Of a stretch of DNA of 64,000 nucleotides, positions 1-6,449 are shown in pieces. Source of the DNA: Vibrio sp. 05-20-BW147 (GTDB lineage: Bacteria; Pseudomonadota; Gammaproteobacteria; Enterobacterales; Vibrionaceae); NCBI RefSeq assembly GCF_013369385.1, contig NZ_SZTO01000001.1, positions 1 through 64,000 of the forward strand. Reading direction: 5' to 3'. A model generated the notes under the pieces. The model made no database searches. It worked only from the letters and a program-made list of their open reading frames with translations, and had not been told where the DNA came from. Positions within the stretch are counted from its first letter, which is position 1. Each line of letters opens with the position of its first letter. Position numbers and translations under genes: made by a program.

Positions 1-144
1 GCTGTTGAAAACATCGCGTTGTTTAGACGTTTTGTCATGAATATGCTCAAGCAATGCGACTGTGGTGCTCCGAGCCAAAAAGTGAAGATGAAGAAAGCGG
101 GTTGGAACGATGATTATAGGGCAAGAGTCTTCTTGGGGTTATAA
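1..144 (+). CDS. Transposase, ISAs1 family, C-terminal fragment (cut by window edge)
   Basis: An open frame from the first base to a TAA at 142-144 encodes 47 residues. The segments ENIALFRRFVMNMLKQ and KKAGWNDDYRARVF match the conserved C-terminal pattern of ISAs1-family transposases (E-N-x-A-x-x-R-R, N-x-L-K, then K-x-x-A-x-W-x-x-D/E-Y). The DDE catalytic residues lie upstream, outside the window, so it cannot be said whether the element is intact. Its 3' end overlaps the antisense frame of the truncated regulator next door, whose last 18 codons are read from the IS end. Confidence 0.85.
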   Translation, partial: AVENIALFRRFVMNMLKQCDCGAPSQKVKMKKAGWNDDYRARVFLGL

Positions 145-170
145 ATCCACCAAAGTATGCTCCCGCCCTG
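1..170 (+). mobile_element. Right end of an ISAs1-family insertion sequence
   Basis: The left edge of the window lies inside an insertion sequence. A transposase reading frame ends at 144, and 26 bases later the sequence ...CCCGCCCTG (ending at 170) gives way to host DNA. Read from outside, the end begins CAGGGCGGGAGC, matching the CAGGG-type ends of ISAs1-family elements. At 171 the sequence becomes that of an HxlR-type regulator gene, so the element sits in that gene. The left end and the target duplication are outside the window. Family assignment rests on the transposase C-terminus and the terminal bases; the exact element was not identified. Confidence 0.75.
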
Positions 171-431
171 ATAATTAACCGTAACGGGGATGGTATCTTC
201 TTGCTTTCGCCATACGAAACCATGCTCTTGCAGTAGTTTTAAACGTTCAGTCAAGACTTTGCTGGAAACCAAAGCTAACTGTTTACGTATTTGGCCAAAA
301 CGCATAGTTTCTTGTTGCCCTAGCAGCCAGACAATATGAGCTGTCCACTTAGTGGAGATAAGCGTTAAATATTTATCAACACTACAGTAGCCATCAGGTT
401 GTAATTGGTGGGGCATGGGGAATTTTTCCAT
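114..431 (-). pseudogene. HxlR-type transcriptional regulator, 3' end replaced by IS sequence
   Basis: The host-coded part (171-431, 87 codons) is a winged-helix HxlR-family domain: LISTKWTAHIVWLL, then MRFGQIRKQL, then SSKVLTERLKLLQEHGFV, then the first wing strand. At the point where the family continues with a Y-x-L-T-x-x-G segment and a C-terminal dimerisation helix, the frame crosses into the IS end and adds 18 foreign residues before a stop. The dimerisation helix is therefore lost and the protein is probably inactive. An ATG at 431 is chosen; a GTG at 482 in the same frame would add 17 residues. The gene is divergent from the SnoaL-like gene at 629, its likely target. Confidence 0.75.
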
Positions 432-492
432 TTTCAATAATCGATCATTGTCGCTTGATAGACTAATCAACAAGTCTAACACAGCCTAGTCA

Positions 493-543
493 GTTACCCT
501 CAGGTTACTAGTTACTTTTGGGTCCCTAATTTTAAAAAGTAAC
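493..543. promoter_or_regulatory. Cluster of GTTAC elements, probable HxlR operator
   Basis: The gap between the divergent HxlR-type gene and the secreted-protein gene holds three direct GTTAC units (493-497, 504-508, 511-515) and an inverted pair, GTTACTTTT at 511-519 with AAAAGTAAC at 535-543, separated by 15 bases. Inverted arms in a divergent promoter are typical of autoregulated operators. No binding data are available, and assignment to the adjacent regulator is by position only. Confidence 0.5.
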
Positions 544-628
544 CAGCTTCATTATTGTTATTGGCAACGAAAAGAGGCGAAATCAAAGCCGCTTTTCATT
601 CTGAAAAATTGTAATGGAGTGTTCAGTT

Positions 629-1039
629 ATGCGTTTATTGCTATTGGTTATTGGCTTAATGTCTTTTTCCCTTCACGCTTCGGTGGATTACCGAAAACCA
701 CAAAGTCCTTCTGAGCTGCATGCTCTATTTGGTGAGTATTTCATTCAGAAAGATTTGACAGGTTTAACGTCATTGTTTGATGAGAATGCAGTCTTAGTGT
801 TGGATGCTTCAGGGAAGCAGGCTATAGGGCGAAAGGAAATCGGACAGGCGTTAAAAGGGTATATGTCCGGTGATGTAGAGATGGTGACCAAAAGTGTTTC
901 TATTCACATTAACGGTACGCTTGCACAGGTCCGTTCTGAGTGGGAGATCCCTAACGTTACCTCTGGTGTCGCGCTTGAAGTGATGCACTATGTCGATGGT
1001 GGCTGGCTTTATATCATCGACAATCCAAATGGTTTTTGA
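629..1039 (+). CDS. Secreted SnoaL/NTF2-like (DUF4440-type) protein
   Basis: This 136-residue protein has an N-terminal signal peptide (MRLLLLVIGLMSFSLHA) followed by a single compact domain. The pattern SELHALFGEYFIQKDLTGLTS, LFDENAVLVLD, AIGRKEIGQAL and a terminal DGGWLYIIDNP is that of SnoaL-like/DUF4440 members of the NTF2 fold, which are small ligand-binding or isomerase-like domains. The start at 629 has GGAG ten bases upstream; the ATG at 614 lacks one. It faces the disrupted HxlR-type gene across a GTTAC-rich gap and may now be constitutively expressed. Substrate unknown. Confidence 0.75.
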   Translation: MRLLLLVIGLMSFSLHASVDYRKPQSPSELHALFGEYFIQKDLTGLTSLFDENAVLVLDASGKQAIGRKEIGQALKGYMSGDVEMVTKSVSIHINGTLAQVRSEWEIPNVTSGVALEVMHYVDGGWLYIIDNPNGF

Positions 1040-1079
1040 TACTAAGGTTTGGCATAAGCTCTTTGAGATAAGTGAAAAA

Positions 1080-1105
1080 AGCGAGCCGAGGCTCGCTTTG
1101 GTTTG
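1080..1105. terminator. Intrinsic terminator between convergent genes
   Basis: AGCGAGCC (1080-1087) and GGCTCGCT (1090-1097) form an 8-bp stem with a 2-base loop. A-rich sequence lies before it and a T-rich tract after it, so it can serve both the SnoaL-like gene and the minus-strand transporter gene. Confidence 0.8.
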
Positions 1106-1140
1106 TCTTAAAGTGACGGATTCAAAGAGGGGGAACCCGA

Positions 1141-2046
1141 TCAGTTATCCCGAGTCGAGGTGACAATCACACTAAACAGGATGAGTGCGCCACCGAGCAA
1201 TTGCAGCGCGGTGAGGGATTCTTGTAACCACACCATCGCGAAAATGGCGCCGAACAGAGGTTCACTGCCCATTAGGAGTGAAACGCGAGTCGGTGAGGTT
1301 CTGCGCACGGCGTAGTTTTGCACGTAGAAAGCAAACAGCGTACAAAACAGCACGAGGTATGCCACTGTGAGCCAAAATTCGAGCGAGACGGGCAGTACAA
1401 TCTCTGCGGCTGGTACATACACCAACACGCCGACGATTGCACAACTGGCCACCACGAAAGATTGCAGAGAGGTGAGCGTTGAGGTGGTGATGGCTTTGCC
1501 TTCGGTGAAACGTTTGGTCATGGTGACCATTAAGGCACGCAGCAGTGCTGCGGTTAAAATAAAGTAGTCACCAGTGTTGAGCGAAAGCTCGATGCCTTGA
1601 TCGCTGGTGAGCAAGAGTACGCCGATGACACTGCACACAGTGAGAGCCAATAAAGTATTACTGATGCGCTTTTTATTGATCACCAGTTCGGCAAACGCCG
1701 TTAGGATAACGGTGAGGCTGATCAAAAATGCGGCATTGGATGCAGAGGTTTGTGAAACCCCAAACACTTCGCAGAAAAAAATCGCCGAGAGGATAAAGCC
1801 GGTCGGTATGGCAATCTTCCAGTCCTTATTGAGTCCTTGGCGAAAGTCTCGAATCACGACAGGTAGCATACACAGGAAAGTGATCGAGAAACGAATCGAG
1901 ATGAAGAGCAAAACGCTGGTATACACTAGAGCGCTTTTTGTGAGCCCGTAACTGGTTCCCCAAAATACGGCCACTAACAGCAGCAGTGTTTCAGTGAGGG
2001 GAAACTTAAAACTTCCTTTTTTTAACGAACTCGTCGCTGTAGTCAT
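1141..2046 (-). CDS. EamA/DMT-superfamily transporter, probable amino-acid exporter
   Basis: The protein has 301 residues and about ten hydrophobic helices in two EamA repeats (FWGTSYGLTKSALVYTS near residue 25; the second begins near 160). The ATG at 2046 is preceded by GGAGAAATAAC, and this ribosome-binding site overlaps the stop of the upstream hydroxylase gene, with one base between the two reading frames. DMT transporters next to 2-oxoglutarate amino-acid hydroxylase genes are known as exporters in Bacillus isoleucine-4-hydroxylase operons. Export of the product of the two upstream enzymes is inferred. It is the last gene of the operon and ends at a bidirectional terminator. Confidence 0.85.
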   Translation of the reverse strand: MTTATSSLKKGSFKFPLTETLLLLVAVFWGTSYGLTKSALVYTSVLLFISIRFSITFLCMLPVVIRDFRQGLNKDWKIAIPTGFILSAIFFCEVFGVSQTSASNAAFLISLTVILTAFAELVINKKRISNTLLALTVCSVIGVLLLTSDQGIELSLNTGDYFILTAALLRALMVTMTKRFTEGKAITTSTLTSLQSFVVASCAIVGVLVYVPAAEIVLPVSLEFWLTVAYLVLFCTLFAFYVQNYAVRRTSPTRVSLLMGSEPLFGAIFAMVWLQESLTALQLLGGALILFSVIVTSTRDN

Positions 2047-2047
2047 G

Positions 2048-2800
2048 TTATTTCTCCATTTTTGTAAAAGCGATGACGAGTACATCCCTAGATGCTGAGG
2101 TCTCACTGCTCGCGGGAGTAATGGTCGAGACTTCGTGCATCGTAGCGGCATCGTCCGCCATGACGATGTCGAAGGTTTTATCGAGCGTGATGCGCTCGAG
2201 CTCGTTTTGATTGGCATCGGTGAGGCGGGTTTCGCCACCGGATACATTGATCTTGTTGATCATCATCGAGGCGATATACGTCACGCCATCACGATGTAAC
2301 CCTTCAGGCGTTGGTTCGCCCGCTTCTGCTTCCGTTGCGGTAATGCGATAAGGGTGCAAGCGGATATTCCAGTTTTGCGGTTCGCCTTCGACGTCGTCAT
2401 AGATTTCGCTCATCATATTGAGCAACTTTTCCAAAACAGGTGAGGTGACGAAGCGATCCGTCAGCGGTTCAAAATACCTTTCCACGCCACCGTTGAGCGT
2501 GTTGATGTAAGAGGGCTGAACATACGGTTCATGCGGCATCATCACGATCTCTTTGCTGCGTGCGAGCTTGGTAAATTGACCATAGCGGCGGTAGCGATAC
2601 GTCCCTCCATCCGCCATATAGCGATCGCGTTCTAACTGGTTCCAGCAGTTTTTGAATCGAATCACTTCGCCAACATGAGTGCTGAGCAATAACGTCATTT
2701 GTCGTCCATTGATAAAGACGTATTTGTACTTTTTCAGCTGTTGCGAAATGGGAAGAACGCTCTGTTTGGTTTTATGAGTCGTGCTTTCTGTCATTGTCAT
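2048..2800 (-). CDS. 2-oxoglutarate/Fe(II)-dependent dioxygenase, free amino-acid hydroxylase family
   Basis: The protein has 250 residues and resembles the 2OG-Fe dioxygenase family (PF10014) that includes the L-isoleucine 4-hydroxylase of Bacillus thuringiensis. The motif GLHRDGVTYIASMMINK gives the H-x-D iron ligands. A later H in ATMHEVSTI and the R in SASRDVLVIAF supply the third ligand and the 2-oxoglutarate-binding arginine. The family consensus is visible in GGETRLTD and FDIVMADD. GGAGGCGCAG sits directly before the ATG at 2800; an ATG two codons later is also possible. It is the middle gene of a packed operon, 11 bases after the ArgG-like gene. Substrate unknown; a free aliphatic amino acid is the family expectation. 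Confidence 0.85.
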   Translation of the reverse strand: MTMTESTTHKTKQSVLPISQQLKKYKYVFINGRQMTLLLSTHVGEVIRFKNCWNQLERDRYMADGGTYRYRRYGQFTKLARSKEIVMMPHEPYVQPSYINTLNGGVERYFEPLTDRFVTSPVLEKLLNMMSEIYDDVEGEPQNWNIRLHPYRITATEAEAGEPTPEGLHRDGVTYIASMMINKINVSGGETRLTDANQNELERITLDKTFDIVMADDAATMHEVSTITPASSETSASRDVLVIAFTKMEK

Positions 2801-2811
2801 CTGCGCCTCCG

Positions 2812-4026
2812 TTACGCGACTTGATGCTGTTTATCAGATGTCGGTTCAAGTTGAACCGAGCGCATACTGCGGGTATGCGCCACGTTTATCTCCCAATTGT
2901 CGCGATCACGTAGGTATCGTGCATTATCTGCAACAATACTGGTGGCGATTGCATTACCTCGGGAAAGTTTAAAGAGGACACTGCCAGAGACATGCTCGGC
3001 AGTGTGAGCGATGAACGCATAGCTGGCATTTTGCAACAGACTGCCGAAGCGACCTTCGACCGCTTCTTGAGTCCACGTTTCGTTGTGCCATGCTTTGGCT
3101 TTGAGAACATCGGTAGGTAAAGTGGCCGTTTCCAGCAACTTATAAGCCTTCATCAAGAGCATAGCAGCGGGTGCTTCGCGCACCTCTAACACTTTTTCGT
3201 CTTGATCGAGATGGTCGAACCCTACATAACGACCTATCTCATACGCGCCAACGTGGTTGTTAATAAACGCTATTAACTCGAGTAGGGTTATCGGTTTGTC
3301 ATTTAAGGTAACCGGATAACCTTGTTTGAAACCGATCTTGATGCTGTCGCCTTCAAGGTGGTGCTCTGGTTGCCAACGCGACCAGGTAAAAAGCGCATCG
3401 GCGAGGGTGAAATTTTCCGGATCGTCCAAGATGCCGGATTCAAACTCGCGACACCATAAATTGGAATCGCCACTGACATTACGAGATTTAAAGCCAACTA
3501 AACCGGAGTGAAACAGCGTCTGAGCTTTTTCTTCGCGGCTGATGGCGGAATATTCATAAGGTGAACCGTAGAACCCTTGGTAGCCTGAGCGTTCAATCGC
3601 GCCATTGAGACGGCGTAAGCTATTTTGCGACTGATTCGCGGTGTGGATGATGGCGTCACAACCGAGGATCTGCGCCAGATCGACCGCTTTTTTAACAATG
3701 ATTGGTCGAGAGAGTGAAGAACTTACCGGATAGTCACCTAGGTAAAGCGCTTGTGCTTGTATGGCAGAAAAGAGGCTGTGTTCAACAAATTCCTGTTTTG
3801 CATCGAGGATTTTTAAATCGAAGCCGTAATGATCGGTGATGAGCTTGAGTTTGGATTCTTCGATGTCATCGCCAAGATCGATGGCCACCGCCGTGACTTT
3901 TGCGCGGCTGTTTTTGAGAATCTCGAGCAAGTAAGAGCTATCTAAGCCGCCGCTAAAGAGCGTCAACACATGTTTGGCTTGGCTCGCGACGTTTTGCACA
4001 TCCTCAATACTTCTGATTTTCTTCAT
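2812..4026 (-). CDS. Argininosuccinate-synthase-related ligase (not canonical ArgG)
   Basis: The protein has 404 residues and aligns with ArgG along its whole length. The PP-loop is LFSGGLDSSYLLEIL (about residues 23-37). ALYLGDYPVSSSLSRP corresponds to the ArgG A-L-Y-x-G-x-Y-P segment, and SNLWCREFESGILDDP to its N-L-W-G-R-S-x-E-x-G-x-L-E-D-P segment. The loop that in ArgG reads H-G-x-T-G-K-G-N-D-Q and holds ATP and aspartate reads IIHTANQSQNSLRR here, so the G-K-G and the N-D pair are lost. ATP-dependent ligation with altered substrates is the likely chemistry. First gene of the operon, divergent from the LysR gene at 4131. Product unknown. Confidence 0.8.
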   Translation of the reverse strand: MKKIRSIEDVQNVASQAKHVLTLFSGGLDSSYLLEILKNSRAKVTAVAIDLGDDIEESKLKLITDHYGFDLKILDAKQEFVEHSLFSAIQAQALYLGDYPVSSSLSRPIIVKKAVDLAQILGCDAIIHTANQSQNSLRRLNGAIERSGYQGFYGSPYEYSAISREEKAQTLFHSGLVGFKSRNVSGDSNLWCREFESGILDDPENFTLADALFTWSRWQPEHHLEGDSIKIGFKQGYPVTLNDKPITLLELIAFINNHVGAYEIGRYVGFDHLDQDEKVLEVREAPAAMLLMKAYKLLETATLPTDVLKAKAWHNETWTQEAVEGRFGSLLQNASYAFIAHTAEHVSGSVLFKLSRGNAIATSIVADNARYLRDRDNWEINVAHTRSMRSVQLEPTSDKQHQVA

Positions 4027-4055
4027 CTCTCTGTCCTTGATGTTGTCTGACCAAT

Positions 4056-4065
4056 GTCAATTGAC
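4056..4065. promoter_or_regulatory. Palindrome in divergent LysR/operon promoter
   Basis: GTCAATTGAC is a perfect 10-base palindrome in the 104-base gap between the ArgG-like operon and the LysR gene. It is a plausible LysR-type operator core; binding is inferred from position only. Confidence 0.4.
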
Positions 4066-4130
4066 TTAATTAGTATCTATAAGTAACTTCAACGGAACAA
4101 TATAGTGAAAATGCAAAGGATAATTGCGCC

Positions 4131-5042
4131 ATGGACACAAATAGGCTCATTCCACTGCTTTCAGAGATGGCTATTTTCGTGAATGTCGTCGAAACCGGTA
4201 GTTTTTCAAAAACCGCGCAAAAACTCGGTGTGTCGCCTTCTTCGGTGAGCCGCTCGATTACGCGTTTGGAAAGCGTGCTAGAGAAAAAGCTCTTGGAGCG
4301 CACGACCCGACAAATGCGCTTGAGTGCGACAGGGCAAGAAGTGTACAGCCTGTGCAGTGACATGATGAATGCCGCCAAAATGGCGGTTTCAGCGGCGCAA
4401 ACCGACATGAGTGAGGTGTCGGGTTCGCTTCGTGTCGCGGCACCAAAAGCGCTCGCTCGCCAAGTGTTGATGCCGCTAGTGCTCGACTTTCTTGCTGAGT
4501 ACCCCAAGATTTCGCTGCAACTTAAGGTGGCCGATCACTATATTGATCCGATTGGTGATGAGGTGGATGTGATTATTCAAATCACCGACAAACCGACGGA
4601 AGGGCTAGTGGCGCGAAATTTGGGCCAATGCCGTCTGGTGTTGTGCGCCAGCGAAAGCTATTTGCAGCAGCAAGGCACGCCGAATCACCCAGACGATTTA
4701 GCAGGACACAACTGCTTATGTTTAGGGGAAAACCCCCGTGATAGGTTGTGGGATTTTACCCTTGGTAGCCGCAAGATCTCGATCAATGTGAAAGGGTCGT
4801 TTGCGGTCAACCACAGTGAAATTCGCCGCGAAGCGGTGTTACGAGGCTTTGGGATCTCTGTTTTTCCAGAATTTACGATTCGCCAATACATCGAATCCGG
4901 TCAGTTAATCCAACTACTTAGTGATTGGCATGTGGGCGGCAACTATCAAGGGCAGATTCTGGCACAATACGCGCAGTCGAAATATGTACCGCAGCAGATC
5001 AAAACCTTTGTTGAGTTTCTACAACAACGTATGTTGGTGTAG
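4131..5042 (+). CDS. LysR-family transcriptional regulator
   Basis: The protein has 303 residues. The N-terminal winged helix (residues 10-70) shows VVETGSFSKTAQKLGVSPSSVSRSI, and a linker leads to a periplasmic-binding-like co-inducer domain. The sequence is of the CrgA/DsdC-like subgroup (SGSLRVAAPKALARQVLMP, then AVLRGFGISVFPEF). It is transcribed away from the ArgG-like/hydroxylase/exporter operon, the usual arrangement for a LysR regulator and its target, so it probably senses the substrate or product of that operon. An intrinsic terminator follows the gene. Confidence 0.88.
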   Translation: MDTNRLIPLLSEMAIFVNVVETGSFSKTAQKLGVSPSSVSRSITRLESVLEKKLLERTTRQMRLSATGQEVYSLCSDMMNAAKMAVSAAQTDMSEVSGSLRVAAPKALARQVLMPLVLDFLAEYPKISLQLKVADHYIDPIGDEVDVIIQITDKPTEGLVARNLGQCRLVLCASESYLQQQGTPNHPDDLAGHNCLCLGENPRDRLWDFTLGSRKISINVKGSFAVNHSEIRREAVLRGFGISVFPEFTIRQYIESGQLIQLLSDWHVGGNYQGQILAQYAQSKYVPQQIKTFVEFLQQRMLV

Positions 5043-5083
5043 CGATGAATTTGCAAAAGCAAACTATTTGGCCTGAAAAGAGA

Positions 5084-5121
5084 AACCTCGCGATGAATGG
5101 ATCATCGCGGGGTTCGTTTTC
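5084..5121. terminator. Intrinsic terminator after LysR gene
   Basis: AACCTCGCGATGA (5084-5096) pairs with TCATCGCGGGGTT (5102-5114) with one mismatch and a 5-base loop, followed by CGTTTT. The convergent symporter gene ends at 5145, so it may work in both directions. Confidence 0.8.
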
Positions 5122-5144
5122 ATCTTAATGCGAGTAATGATTCA

Positions 5145-6449
5145 TTAAGCGTCAGCACGTTTTAGGTGTACTTCTTCTTCTTTCTCACCTGCTTTCGGAT
5201 CGGCAAAGCGGTCAAGATCTAAGGCACCTTCTGATTTCGCAACAATTACAGAAACACACGCGTCACCAGTGATGTTTACGGCGGTGCGGATCATATCCAG
5301 CAGACGGTCGACACCCATGATCAGCGCGATACCTTCCAGTGGCAGACCCACTTGGTTGAGTACCATCGCCAGCATGACCAGACCAACGCCCGGAACACCA
5401 GCAGTACCGATAGACGCCAATGTTGCGGTGAGTATCACCATCACATAGTCACCCATGCTGAGGTCGATGTTGAATGCTTGAGCGATAAACGCGGTCGCCA
5501 CACCTTGCATGATGGCCGTACCATCCATGTTGACGGTTGCGCCCAACGGAACCGTGAACGAGGCGATTTTGTTGTCTACGCCTAGGCGGTTTTTAACCGT
5601 TTCCATGGTGGCTGGAATGGTGGCATTCGAGGAGGCCGTTGAGAAGGCAAACATAATGGCATCTTCCATTTTCTTCAAGAAAGTCAATGGATTTAGGCCA
5701 GTGAAGCCTTTTAGCATCAAGCTGTAAGTGACCAAACCGTGGATGAGCAGCGTTGCCGTCAACACTAGGAAGTATTCACCTAGATTGATGATTGCGCCCA
5801 AACCTAGGCCAGTAAACAGTTTCGCCATCAAGAAGAACACGCCGTAAGGGGCTAGGTTCATCAGTAGCGCAACCAGCTTCATAATCACTTCGTTAAGATC
5901 AGAGAAGATCGCCGCAATGCGTTCGCCCGGTTTACCAGCTGCACTGATGGCAATACCAAACAGCAGTGCGAAGACGATCACTTGAAGCGTTTTGCCTTCG
6001 GCCATCGCACTGATTGGGTTGGTCGGGAACATATCGATGATCACTTGACCCAATGACGGTGCTTCTGCCGATTTGAACGAGCTTGCTGCGGTGAGATCTG
6101 CTCCTGCTCCAGGTTGGAATACCGTGCCCATGGTCAGAGCGAGTGTGATAGCAACGGCGGTGGTGGTGATGTAAAACGCCAAGGTTTTACCGCCCATGCG
6201 ACCTAGGGTCGAGATATCTTTCAGTGAGCTGGTACCACAAACAAGCGAAACAAAAATCAGTGGTACAACAAGCATTTTTAAGCTGGCAATAAAGATTTTA
6301 CCGCCGACTTCAAAAAGTCCATTTACGATGTATGCGTCAACAAATCCATTGTCAGCAAATAGCGCGCGAATTGCGAATCCTGTCAAGATACCCGTAACCA
6401 TGCCAAGTATTACACGGCCGGTTAGCGACATCGGTTTCTTGGTATTCAT
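5145..6449 (-). CDS. Dicarboxylate/amino-acid:cation symporter (DAACS family)
   Basis: The protein has 434 residues and the GltP/DctA/SstT architecture: eight membrane helices plus two re-entrant hairpins. Diagnostic motifs are the serine-rich hairpin AFSTASSNATIP (about residue 270), VPLGATVNMDGTAIMQG with the NMDGT cation-site motif, and the substrate-site helix RTAVNITGDACVSVIVA. Family members carry glutamate, aspartate or C4-dicarboxylates with Na+ or H+. Which one cannot be told here. A CRP-like site lies about 110 bases upstream, suggesting catabolite control. Single-gene unit. Confidence 0.9.
   Translation of the reverse strand: MNTKKPMSLTGRVILGMVTGILTGFAIRALFADNGFVDAYIVNGLFEVGGKIFIASLKMLVVPLIFVSLVCGTSSLKDISTLGRMGGKTLAFYITTTAVAITLALTMGTVFQPGAGADLTAASSFKSAEAPSLGQVIIDMFPTNPISAMAEGKTLQVIVFALLFGIAISAAGKPGERIAAIFSDLNEVIMKLVALLMNLAPYGVFFLMAKLFTGLGLGAIINLGEYFLVLTATLLIHGLVTYSLMLKGFTGLNPLTFLKKMEDAIMFAFSTASSNATIPATMETVKNRLGVDNKIASFTVPLGATVNMDGTAIMQGVATAFIAQAFNIDLSMGDYVMVILTATLASIGTAGVPGVGLVMLAMVLNQVGLPLEGIALIMGVDRLLDMIRTAVNITGDACVSVIVAKSEGALDLDRFADPKAGEKEEEVHLKRADA

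What the first reader, a model, noticed from the sequence alone, without database searches (positions are those of the whole stretch)
1141..5042. Candidate undescribed pathway: ArgG-like ligase + amino-acid hydroxylase + exporter under a LysR regulator
Three genes read as one unit, with gaps of 11 bases and 1 base, and face a LysR gene. They encode an argininosuccinate-synthase relative, a 2OG/Fe(II) dioxygenase of the isoleucine-hydroxylase family and a DMT exporter. I know of no described system with this set. Hypothesis: the hydroxylase oxidises a free amino acid, the ligase couples it or a ureido compound to another amine using ATP, and the product is exported as a signal, siderophore precursor, osmolyte or antimetabolite. 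The order of steps and the substrates are inference.
Basis: partly seen in the sequence, partly recalled or inferred. Interest (0 to 1): 0.78.

Follow-up and report, generated by a model that had tools for sequence, protein, structure and literature searches.

The report
Probable nitrile amino-acid pathway operon
A small set of bacterial genes, found together in several bacterial phyla, probably turns an amide-bearing amino acid into an oxidised nitrile (cyano) amino acid and pumps it out of the cell; its first enzyme resembles the arginine-pathway enzyme ArgG but carries the active site of a recently described nitrile-making enzyme.

Summary
In a Vibrio, an ArgG-like gene, a PF10014 2OG/Fe(II) dioxygenase gene and an EamA/DMT exporter gene lie head to tail (gaps 11 and 1 bases), divergent from a LysR gene. 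The set is a conserved unit: 53 of 80 related loci from named genomes, in 28 genus-level groups of four phyla, hold all three genes, and in some rhizobia the ArgG-like protein and the dioxygenase are one polypeptide. The 'ligase that couples two amines' reading is probably wrong. The closest solved relative is ArtA, an ATP-dependent nitrile synthetase that dehydrates an amide. The three amide-contacting residues published for ArtA are present, ArgG's aspartate site is lost, and ArtA branches among rhizobial loci that hold the three genes. Best reading: ATP-driven conversion of a Gln/Asn-like side-chain amide to a nitrile, oxidation of the same amino acid, and export, perhaps as an antimetabolite, under LysR control. 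The genome keeps a canonical ArgG between argB and argH. Substrate, oxidation site, order and role are inferred. ArtA (2025) is known; ten searches of open-licence papers found no description of the operon, and the ArtA paper itself could not be read.

The parts
2812..4026 (-). ArgG-like protein, 404 aa: predicted ArtA-type ATP-dependent nitrile synthetase (amide dehydration); NCBIfam argG_rel
   Evidence: NF038212 611.3 bits over cut-off 425; closest PDB 9leh/9lei ArtA; Q134, S185, D187
2048..2800 (-). PF10014 2OG/Fe(II) dioxygenase, 250 aa: predicted oxidation of the same free amino acid
   Evidence: PF10014 205.7 bits; H169, D171, H222, R238 invariant in 21 of 21 aligned; fold match to IDO, HrmJ, BelL, TqaL
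1141..2046 (-). EamA/DMT-family transporter, 301 aa: predicted exporter of the product
   Evidence: PF00892, two stretches, 114.7 bits; next to the dioxygenase in 53 of 56 loci; direction of transport not tested
4131..5042 (+). LysR-type regulator, 303 aa, divergent
   Evidence: PF00126 and PF03466; a LysR hit lies divergently upstream in 39 of the 53 complete loci
4027..4130 (.). shared intergenic region with blocks conserved among 15 Vibrio loci; candidate LysR operator and promoters
   Evidence: alignment; no sigma-70-like site was found here by the consensus scan
1078..1099 (-). terminator-like hairpin after the last gene
   Evidence: consensus match only, also scored on the + strand

Best explanation
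The operon makes and exports an oxidised nitrile amino acid. The ArgG-like protein binds ATP and an amino acid with a side-chain amide (glutamine, asparagine or a close relative) where ArgG binds citrulline, adenylates the amide oxygen and, having no aspartate nucleophile, eliminates AMP to leave a nitrile. The PF10014 dioxygenase hydroxylates (or oxidatively cyclises) the same amino acid, before or after that step. The DMT protein exports the product, which may act as an antimetabolite; the LysR protein controls the unit from the shared intergenic region. Shown by computation: gene set, conservation, fusion, family placement, active-site residues. Inferred: the reaction in this organism, substrate, order, oxidation site, transport direction, regulation, role.
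For: Closest PDB sequence is 9leh, nitrile synthetase (E 3e-97; best true ArgG 1e-35), titled ArtA. A citing preprint says ArtA/NitB catalyse only amide-to-nitrile dehydration and names Q146, S197 and D199 of ArtA as amide-contacting (PMC13060819, passages); the window has Q134, S185, D187 there. In 71 rows with the full gene set Q is kept in 70, S and D in 71; the three ArgGs compared have Gly at the Gln position but the same S and D. ArgG's aspartate-binding Thr and Asp are replaced (N in 69 of 71, S/T in 71 of 71), while P-loop Ser/Asp and citrulline-site Asn and Ser are kept in 71 and Arg in 70 (site roles recalled). ArtA sits in a four-row clade with three rhizobial loci that hold all three genes, support 100/100. 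The three genes lie together in 53 of 80 loci. ArgG-like protein and dioxygenase are one annotated CDS on a Rhizobium sp. 007 plasmid and one 660-aa ORF with both domains in L105, each behind a DMT gene. In 196 Vibrio genomes the 16 with the ArgG-like gene all have the dioxygenase at E < 1e-100. A 17th has a diverged dioxygenase, no ArgG-like gene beside it, and Asn for the iron-binding Asp. A canonical argB-argG-argH set is elsewhere in the genome.
Against: No activity was tested, and ArtA's own paper was not readable: its substrate, organism and gene neighbours are unknown to me. Identity to ArtA is only 44%, and the base of the tree between the ArtA and Vibrio clades is poorly supported. 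L082, ArtA's nearest row, has only a partial dioxygenase match (79 residues). ArgG_rel proteins without the dioxygenase sit in clusters of other chemistry (AMP-binding/carrier domains; a phosphonate cluster with an N-hydroxylase) and yet share the diagnostic residues (29 of 29 rows without the full set have Q), so the residues need not mean one reaction or substrate. Two of 71 rows (Marinobacter L049, L054) keep Thr at the aspartate site and one (L036) has His for the diagnostic Gln. PF10014 includes enzymes recalled to do ring closures. Distances of ArgG-like protein and dioxygenase agree only moderately (rho 0.47).
Confidence: 0.68

Rival explanations
1. One reading: the ArgG-like protein is an ATP-dependent ligase that joins a hydroxylated amino acid or ureido compound to another amine, and the conjugate is exported.
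For: ArgG chemistry joins citrulline to aspartate; P-loop and citrulline-site residues are kept; ArgG_rel occurs in a phosphonate cluster with an ornithine/lysine N-hydroxylase, where an amidine or guanidine product is conceivable.
Against: The aspartate-binding residues are replaced in nearly all rows, the ArtA amide residues are present, and the nearest characterised enzyme does no coupling. No argininosuccinate-lyase-like partner was seen among the seven window genes scanned.
Confidence: 0.13
2. The ArgG-like protein activates a ureido or amide group and hands it to ammonia or water-free ring closure, giving an amidine, guanidine, cyanamide or ring instead of a carbon nitrile; the dioxygenase and exporter act as in the main reading.
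For: Family members in actinobacterial clusters with other chemistry keep the same residues; PF10014 relatives are recalled to close rings (for the fold matches).
Against: ArtA, the only family member with a published reaction known to me, makes a nitrile and groups with loci holding the three genes.
Confidence: 0.12
3. A second housekeeping argininosuccinate synthase that happens to lie in an operon.
For: Fold and Pfam domains of ArgG.
Against: Misses all argG equivalog cut-offs and exceeds the argG_rel cut-off; aspartate site lost; canonical argG between argB and argH in the same genome.
Confidence: 0.01

Closest known systems
ArtA (and NitB) ATP-dependent nitrile synthetases
   Same: ArgG fold, 44% identity and Z 48.2 to ArtA, the three published amide-contacting residues; ArtA groups with rhizobial loci that hold the three genes
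   Different: Substrate of the window protein unknown; ArtA's gene context and product not read (passages of a citing preprint only); NitB was not compared
Argininosuccinate synthase ArgG
   Same: Fold, P-loop, citrulline-site Asn, Arg and Ser
   Different: Aspartate-binding Thr/Asp replaced, Glu194 and Arg283 in place of Ser and Tyr, below the argG cut-offs, not beside argB/argH
PF10014 dioxygenases (IDO, HilB, HrmJ, BelL, TqaL)
   Same: Fold (Z 23-30 to the solved ones) and iron/2OG residues; members hydroxylate free Leu, Ile and Thr at C4 (PMC3684760, passages)
   Different: 19-31% identity to the solved ones; far below the HilB cut-off (34.5 of 350 bits)
IDO and Hil operons (Bacillus thuringiensis; Pantoea and others)
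   Same: PF10014 hydroxylase with an RhtA-family exporter (IDO operon) or with a LysR gene (Hil core), proposed to make an exported amino-acid antimicrobial (PMC3684760, passages); RhtA as a DMT protein is recalled
   Different: They have a dehydrogenase (HilC or AR) and, in some, a carboxylate-amine ligase HilD; no ArgG-like enzyme is mentioned (0 occurrences of argininosuccinate)

Membership tests
ArtA-type nitrile synthetase | ArgG fold, closest to ArtA | tested here: met
   Z 48.2, rmsd 2.2, 380 aligned to 9leh; ArgGs Z 37-41
ArtA-type nitrile synthetase | amide-contacting Gln146, Ser197, Asp199 | tested here: met
   Q134, S185, D187 in the window protein; residues named in PMC13060819. 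Only the Gln separates it from ArgG
ArtA-type nitrile synthetase | groups with ArtA rather than with ArgG | tested here: met
   86 argG_rel rows (ArtA included) split from 3 ArgGs at 100/100
ArtA-type nitrile synthetase | ATP-dependent amide-to-nitrile activity | not testable with these tools
   needs an enzyme assay
Argininosuccinate synthase (ArgG) | aspartate-binding Thr and Asp of TGKGND | tested here: not met
   N131 and S136; site roles recalled from UniProt/HAMAP
Argininosuccinate synthase (ArgG) | NCBIfam argG equivalog score | tested here: not met
   best 187.4 against 268.2 bits; argG_rel 611.3 against 425
PF10014 2OG/Fe(II) dioxygenase | HxD...H iron ligands and 2OG-binding Arg | tested here: met
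   H169, D171, H222, R238 invariant in 21 of 21; roles recalled
PF10014 2OG/Fe(II) dioxygenase | oxidation of a free amino acid | not testable with these tools
   needs an assay
Hil operon | core hilA (PF13640), hilP (PF00497) and hilC (PF00106) with hilB | tested here: not met
   none of these among the seven genes scanned at 114-6449; core as listed in PMC3684760
EamA/DMT transporter | two EamA domains | tested here: met
   PF00892, 2 stretches, 114.7 bits; export direction not tested

The most novel reading that the evidence does not exclude
The exported compound is a new kind of masked toxin. PF10014 enzymes often oxidise C4; on glutamine-derived 2-amino-4-cyanobutanoate that would give the cyanohydrin of aspartate semialdehyde, an exported amino acid that falls apart to hydrogen cyanide and a normal metabolite. 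On asparagine-derived beta-cyanoalanine, C3 oxidation would give a cyano-serine, a Ser/Thr mimic. The second form fits a seryl-tRNA synthetase paralogue lying directly behind the dioxygenase gene in the Salmonella diarizonae NRPS version of the cluster, as a self-resistance gene would; that paralogue was seen in one locus only.
Probability: 0.1. Interest if true: 0.85.

Novelty: new variant of a known kind. Interest (0 to 1): 0.62.

Why it matters
ATP-dependent nitrile formation is known from a handful of enzymes (QueC/ToyM, ArtA/NitB, PesC and CalN are the ones named in PMC13060819, passages). Here an ArtA-like enzyme is tied to a dioxygenase and an exporter, often with a regulator, in a compact unit found in 28 genus-level groups of four phyla among the 80 loci examined, and on plasmids of root-nodule bacteria. 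If right, genes annotated 'argininosuccinate synthase-related' mark a widespread, barely studied class of small nitrile metabolites, and three genes are few enough to reconstitute in one experiment.

Tried and rejected
Ordinary ArgG: rejected. Amine-coupling ligase: kept as a rival, disfavoured. Hil operon membership: rejected on score and gene content. 9dqp as a structure of the partner dioxygenase: it is HrmJ, and a 90% homologue on a S. lavendulae plasmid lies in a PKS region with no argG_rel annotated in the 18.6 kb shown. 3pl0 as partner: its gene context was not seen, and it is at most 42% identical to the 25 best-listed loci here. Other plasmid PF10014 genes outside the unit: an NRPS region, Nostoc, Salinivibrio, Azospirillum; distant PF10014 relatives are common in the genus (156 of 196 genomes at E <= 1e-5), so the co-occurrence claim concerns the close clade only. 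Viral contigs: 46 pattern hits, none a relative. Phage records: 12 matches to the Salmonella ArgG-like protein, all under 60%, the five listed at 30-32%. E. coli genomes: no match to the Salmonella cluster DNA. Seryl-tRNA synthetase as a general self-resistance gene: found only in L064 among the loci held, many of them with short flanks. My first gene caller failed on GC-rich loci (spurious long ORFs); one search replaced it. In one search the labels Y282, E283 and P285 fell on wrong columns; one search gives the right ones.

Papers: PMC13060819 - passages and part 1 of 7 of the text; PMC3684760 - passages. Zeng et al., ACS Catal 2025, and Kishimoto et al., JACS 2025, were seen only as entries of a reference list. 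HrmJ, BelL, TqaL and albomycin chemistry is recalled. That no paper describes the operon rests on ten searches of open-licence PMC papers; subscription journals are mostly not covered.

Rows dropped or doubled: the 80 loci are the best 80 of 149 relatives, so counts lean to close relatives. The 71 full-set rows include L001 and L003-L017, which overlap in species with L018-L029; the tree left L003-L017 out. The 29 rows without the full set include five with a dioxygenase but no DMT hit (L051, L064, L085, L098, L100).

Full report
Observation. The three genes and the facing LysR gene are as described. The unit reads from 4026 to 1141 on the - strand: ArgG-like, PF10014 dioxygenase, EamA/DMT, with gaps of 11 and 1 bases. 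The 104-base region to the LysR gene holds blocks conserved among 15 Vibrio loci, and a terminator-like hairpin follows the last gene. The genus is inferred from the genome search calling the genomes of V. sinaloensis-type loci 'same genus' (G033 has the coordinates of L019).

Conservation. One scan of named genomes kept the best 80 of 149 relatives of the ArgG-like protein. Of these 80, 56 have a dioxygenase hit within 2.5 kb, 53 a DMT hit as well, and 39 of the 53 a LysR hit too, divergent and upstream in 39 of 39. The 53 complete loci fall in 28 of 38 genus-level groups in Pseudomonadota, Actinomycetota, Cyanobacteriota and Myxococcota; in 52 the DMT gene lies downstream, in one (L082) upstream. 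None of the 24 loci without the dioxygenase has a DMT hit, an internal control for a common transporter family. Only 5 of 398 sampled genomes of the phylum, the window's own included, carry argG_rel, so the unit is patchy.

Presence and absence in Vibrio. Of 196 genomes, 16 have the ArgG-like gene at E <= 1e-60. The same 16 have the dioxygenase at E < 1e-100, next to it. One more, G071, has a 53% dioxygenase (E 7e-81); its 3.7-kb locus L134 runs LysR, dioxygenase, DMT with no ArgG-like gene, and the iron-binding HRD reads HRN. Loss of one enzyme thus goes with a changed iron site in the other, in one case. Weaker PF10014 relatives occur in most genomes (156 of 196 at E <= 1e-5). In Photobacterium L030 the dioxygenase has one in-frame stop (a sequencing error is not excluded).

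Fusion. On a Rhizobium sp. 007 plasmid one annotated CDS covers both enzymes, with a DMT gene upstream. In L105 one 660-aa ORF holds the domains of both, again behind a DMT gene. In that genus 8 of 61 genomes have argG_rel, and 7 of the 8 show a 665-codon frame; apart from L105 (G316) these were judged by frame length only.

What the ArgG-like protein is. It exceeds the argG_rel cut-off and misses the argG equivalog cut-offs. The best solved relatives are 9leh and 9lei, titled nitrile synthetase ArtA. A citing preprint says that ArtA/NitB catalyse only amide-to-nitrile dehydration and names Q146, S197 and D199 as amide-contacting (PMC13060819, passages). These map to Q134, S185 and D187 of the window protein. 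Q is found in 70 of 71 full-set rows (some from overlapping species) and in 29 of 29 others; Gly stands there in the three ArgGs compared, which share the Ser and Asp. ArgG's aspartate ligands are replaced (2 of 71 rows keep the Thr) and its P-loop and citrulline contacts largely kept. In the tree ArtA falls with Microvirga lupini (96/64) and two rhizobial plasmid loci (100/100), which hold the three genes (the Microvirga dioxygenase match is partial); the branches between that clade and the Vibrio clade are poorly supported. The window genome has a separate argG between argB and argH.

What the dioxygenase is. A PF10014 protein with intact iron and 2OG residues, closest in fold to 3pl0, 8w8h and IDO and clearly related to HrmJ, BelL and TqaL. 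PF10014 enzymes hydroxylate Leu, Ile and Thr at C4 (PMC3684760); HrmJ, BelL and TqaL are recalled to close rings. The type of oxidation here is open.

Mechanism and its limits. Nitrile formation from a side-chain amide, oxidation of the same molecule and export is the reading that accounts for the parts. Order is open: argG_rel occurs without the dioxygenase in 24 of 80 loci (21 actinobacterial, 3 Burkholderiales), which weakly suggests that the nitrile can be made first. Over 29 loci (one per genus-level group plus the window) pairwise distances of ArgG-like and DMT agree well (rho 0.84; 0 of 2000 permutations as high), those of ArgG-like and dioxygenase (0.47; 1 of 2000) and of dioxygenase and DMT (0.34; 6 of 2000) moderately.

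Other contexts. Without the full set, argG_rel lies beside AMP-binding/carrier genes (L068), in a phosphonate cluster (L093), and in Salmonella diarizonae (L064) between an NRPS gene and a PF10014 dioxygenase, a seryl-tRNA synthetase paralogue and a phosphopantetheinyl transferase. That last cluster hints at a product whose target is seryl-tRNA synthetase, but it is a single case.

Comparison with what is known. The enzyme kind (ArtA) has been known since 2025. The logic, an oxidised free amino acid exported by an RhtA-type pump, resembles the IDO and Hil operons, but with a nitrile synthetase in place of a dehydrogenase. I therefore call it a new variant of a known kind; if the unread ArtA paper describes the same operon, it is a new member.

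Noticed in passing
L064:33-12250: Salmonella enterica subsp. diarizonae: two-module NRPS with thioesterase, ArgG_rel, PF10014 dioxygenase, a seryl-tRNA synthetase paralogue one base later, and a phosphopantetheinyl transferase; looks like a peptide antibiotic cluster with self-resistance.
   Followed up: partly
L134:336-3127: A Vibrio genome (G071) with LysR, dioxygenase and DMT but no ArgG-like gene between them, and HRN in place of the iron-binding HRD.
   Followed up: partly
L105:1459-3441; L110:4639-6603: Single polypeptide fusing the ArgG-like protein and the PF10014 dioxygenase in rhizobia.
   Followed up: yes
L093:2369-9206: ArgG_rel in a phosphonate cluster with PEP mutase, a TPP enzyme and an ornithine/lysine N-hydroxylase; L080 and L095 share some of these genes by clustering.
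   Followed up: no
L068 (similar genes in L071, L096): ArgG_rel beside AMP-binding plus carrier protein, ROK kinase, dCTP deaminase-like and glycosyltransferase genes, possibly a nucleoside-type cluster; only L068 was scanned against Pfam.
   Followed up: no
L030:9256-9981: Photobacterium aquimaris dioxygenase frame has one in-frame stop.
   Followed up: no
G000:C4:69633-70253: A second, distant PF10014 relative (28% identity) in the window's own genome.
   Followed up: no
window 5145-6449: Next to the LysR gene lies a glutamate/dicarboxylate-type symporter gene; in the comparison it was found only in L001, L003 and L004, the window's own and two closest loci.
   Followed up: no
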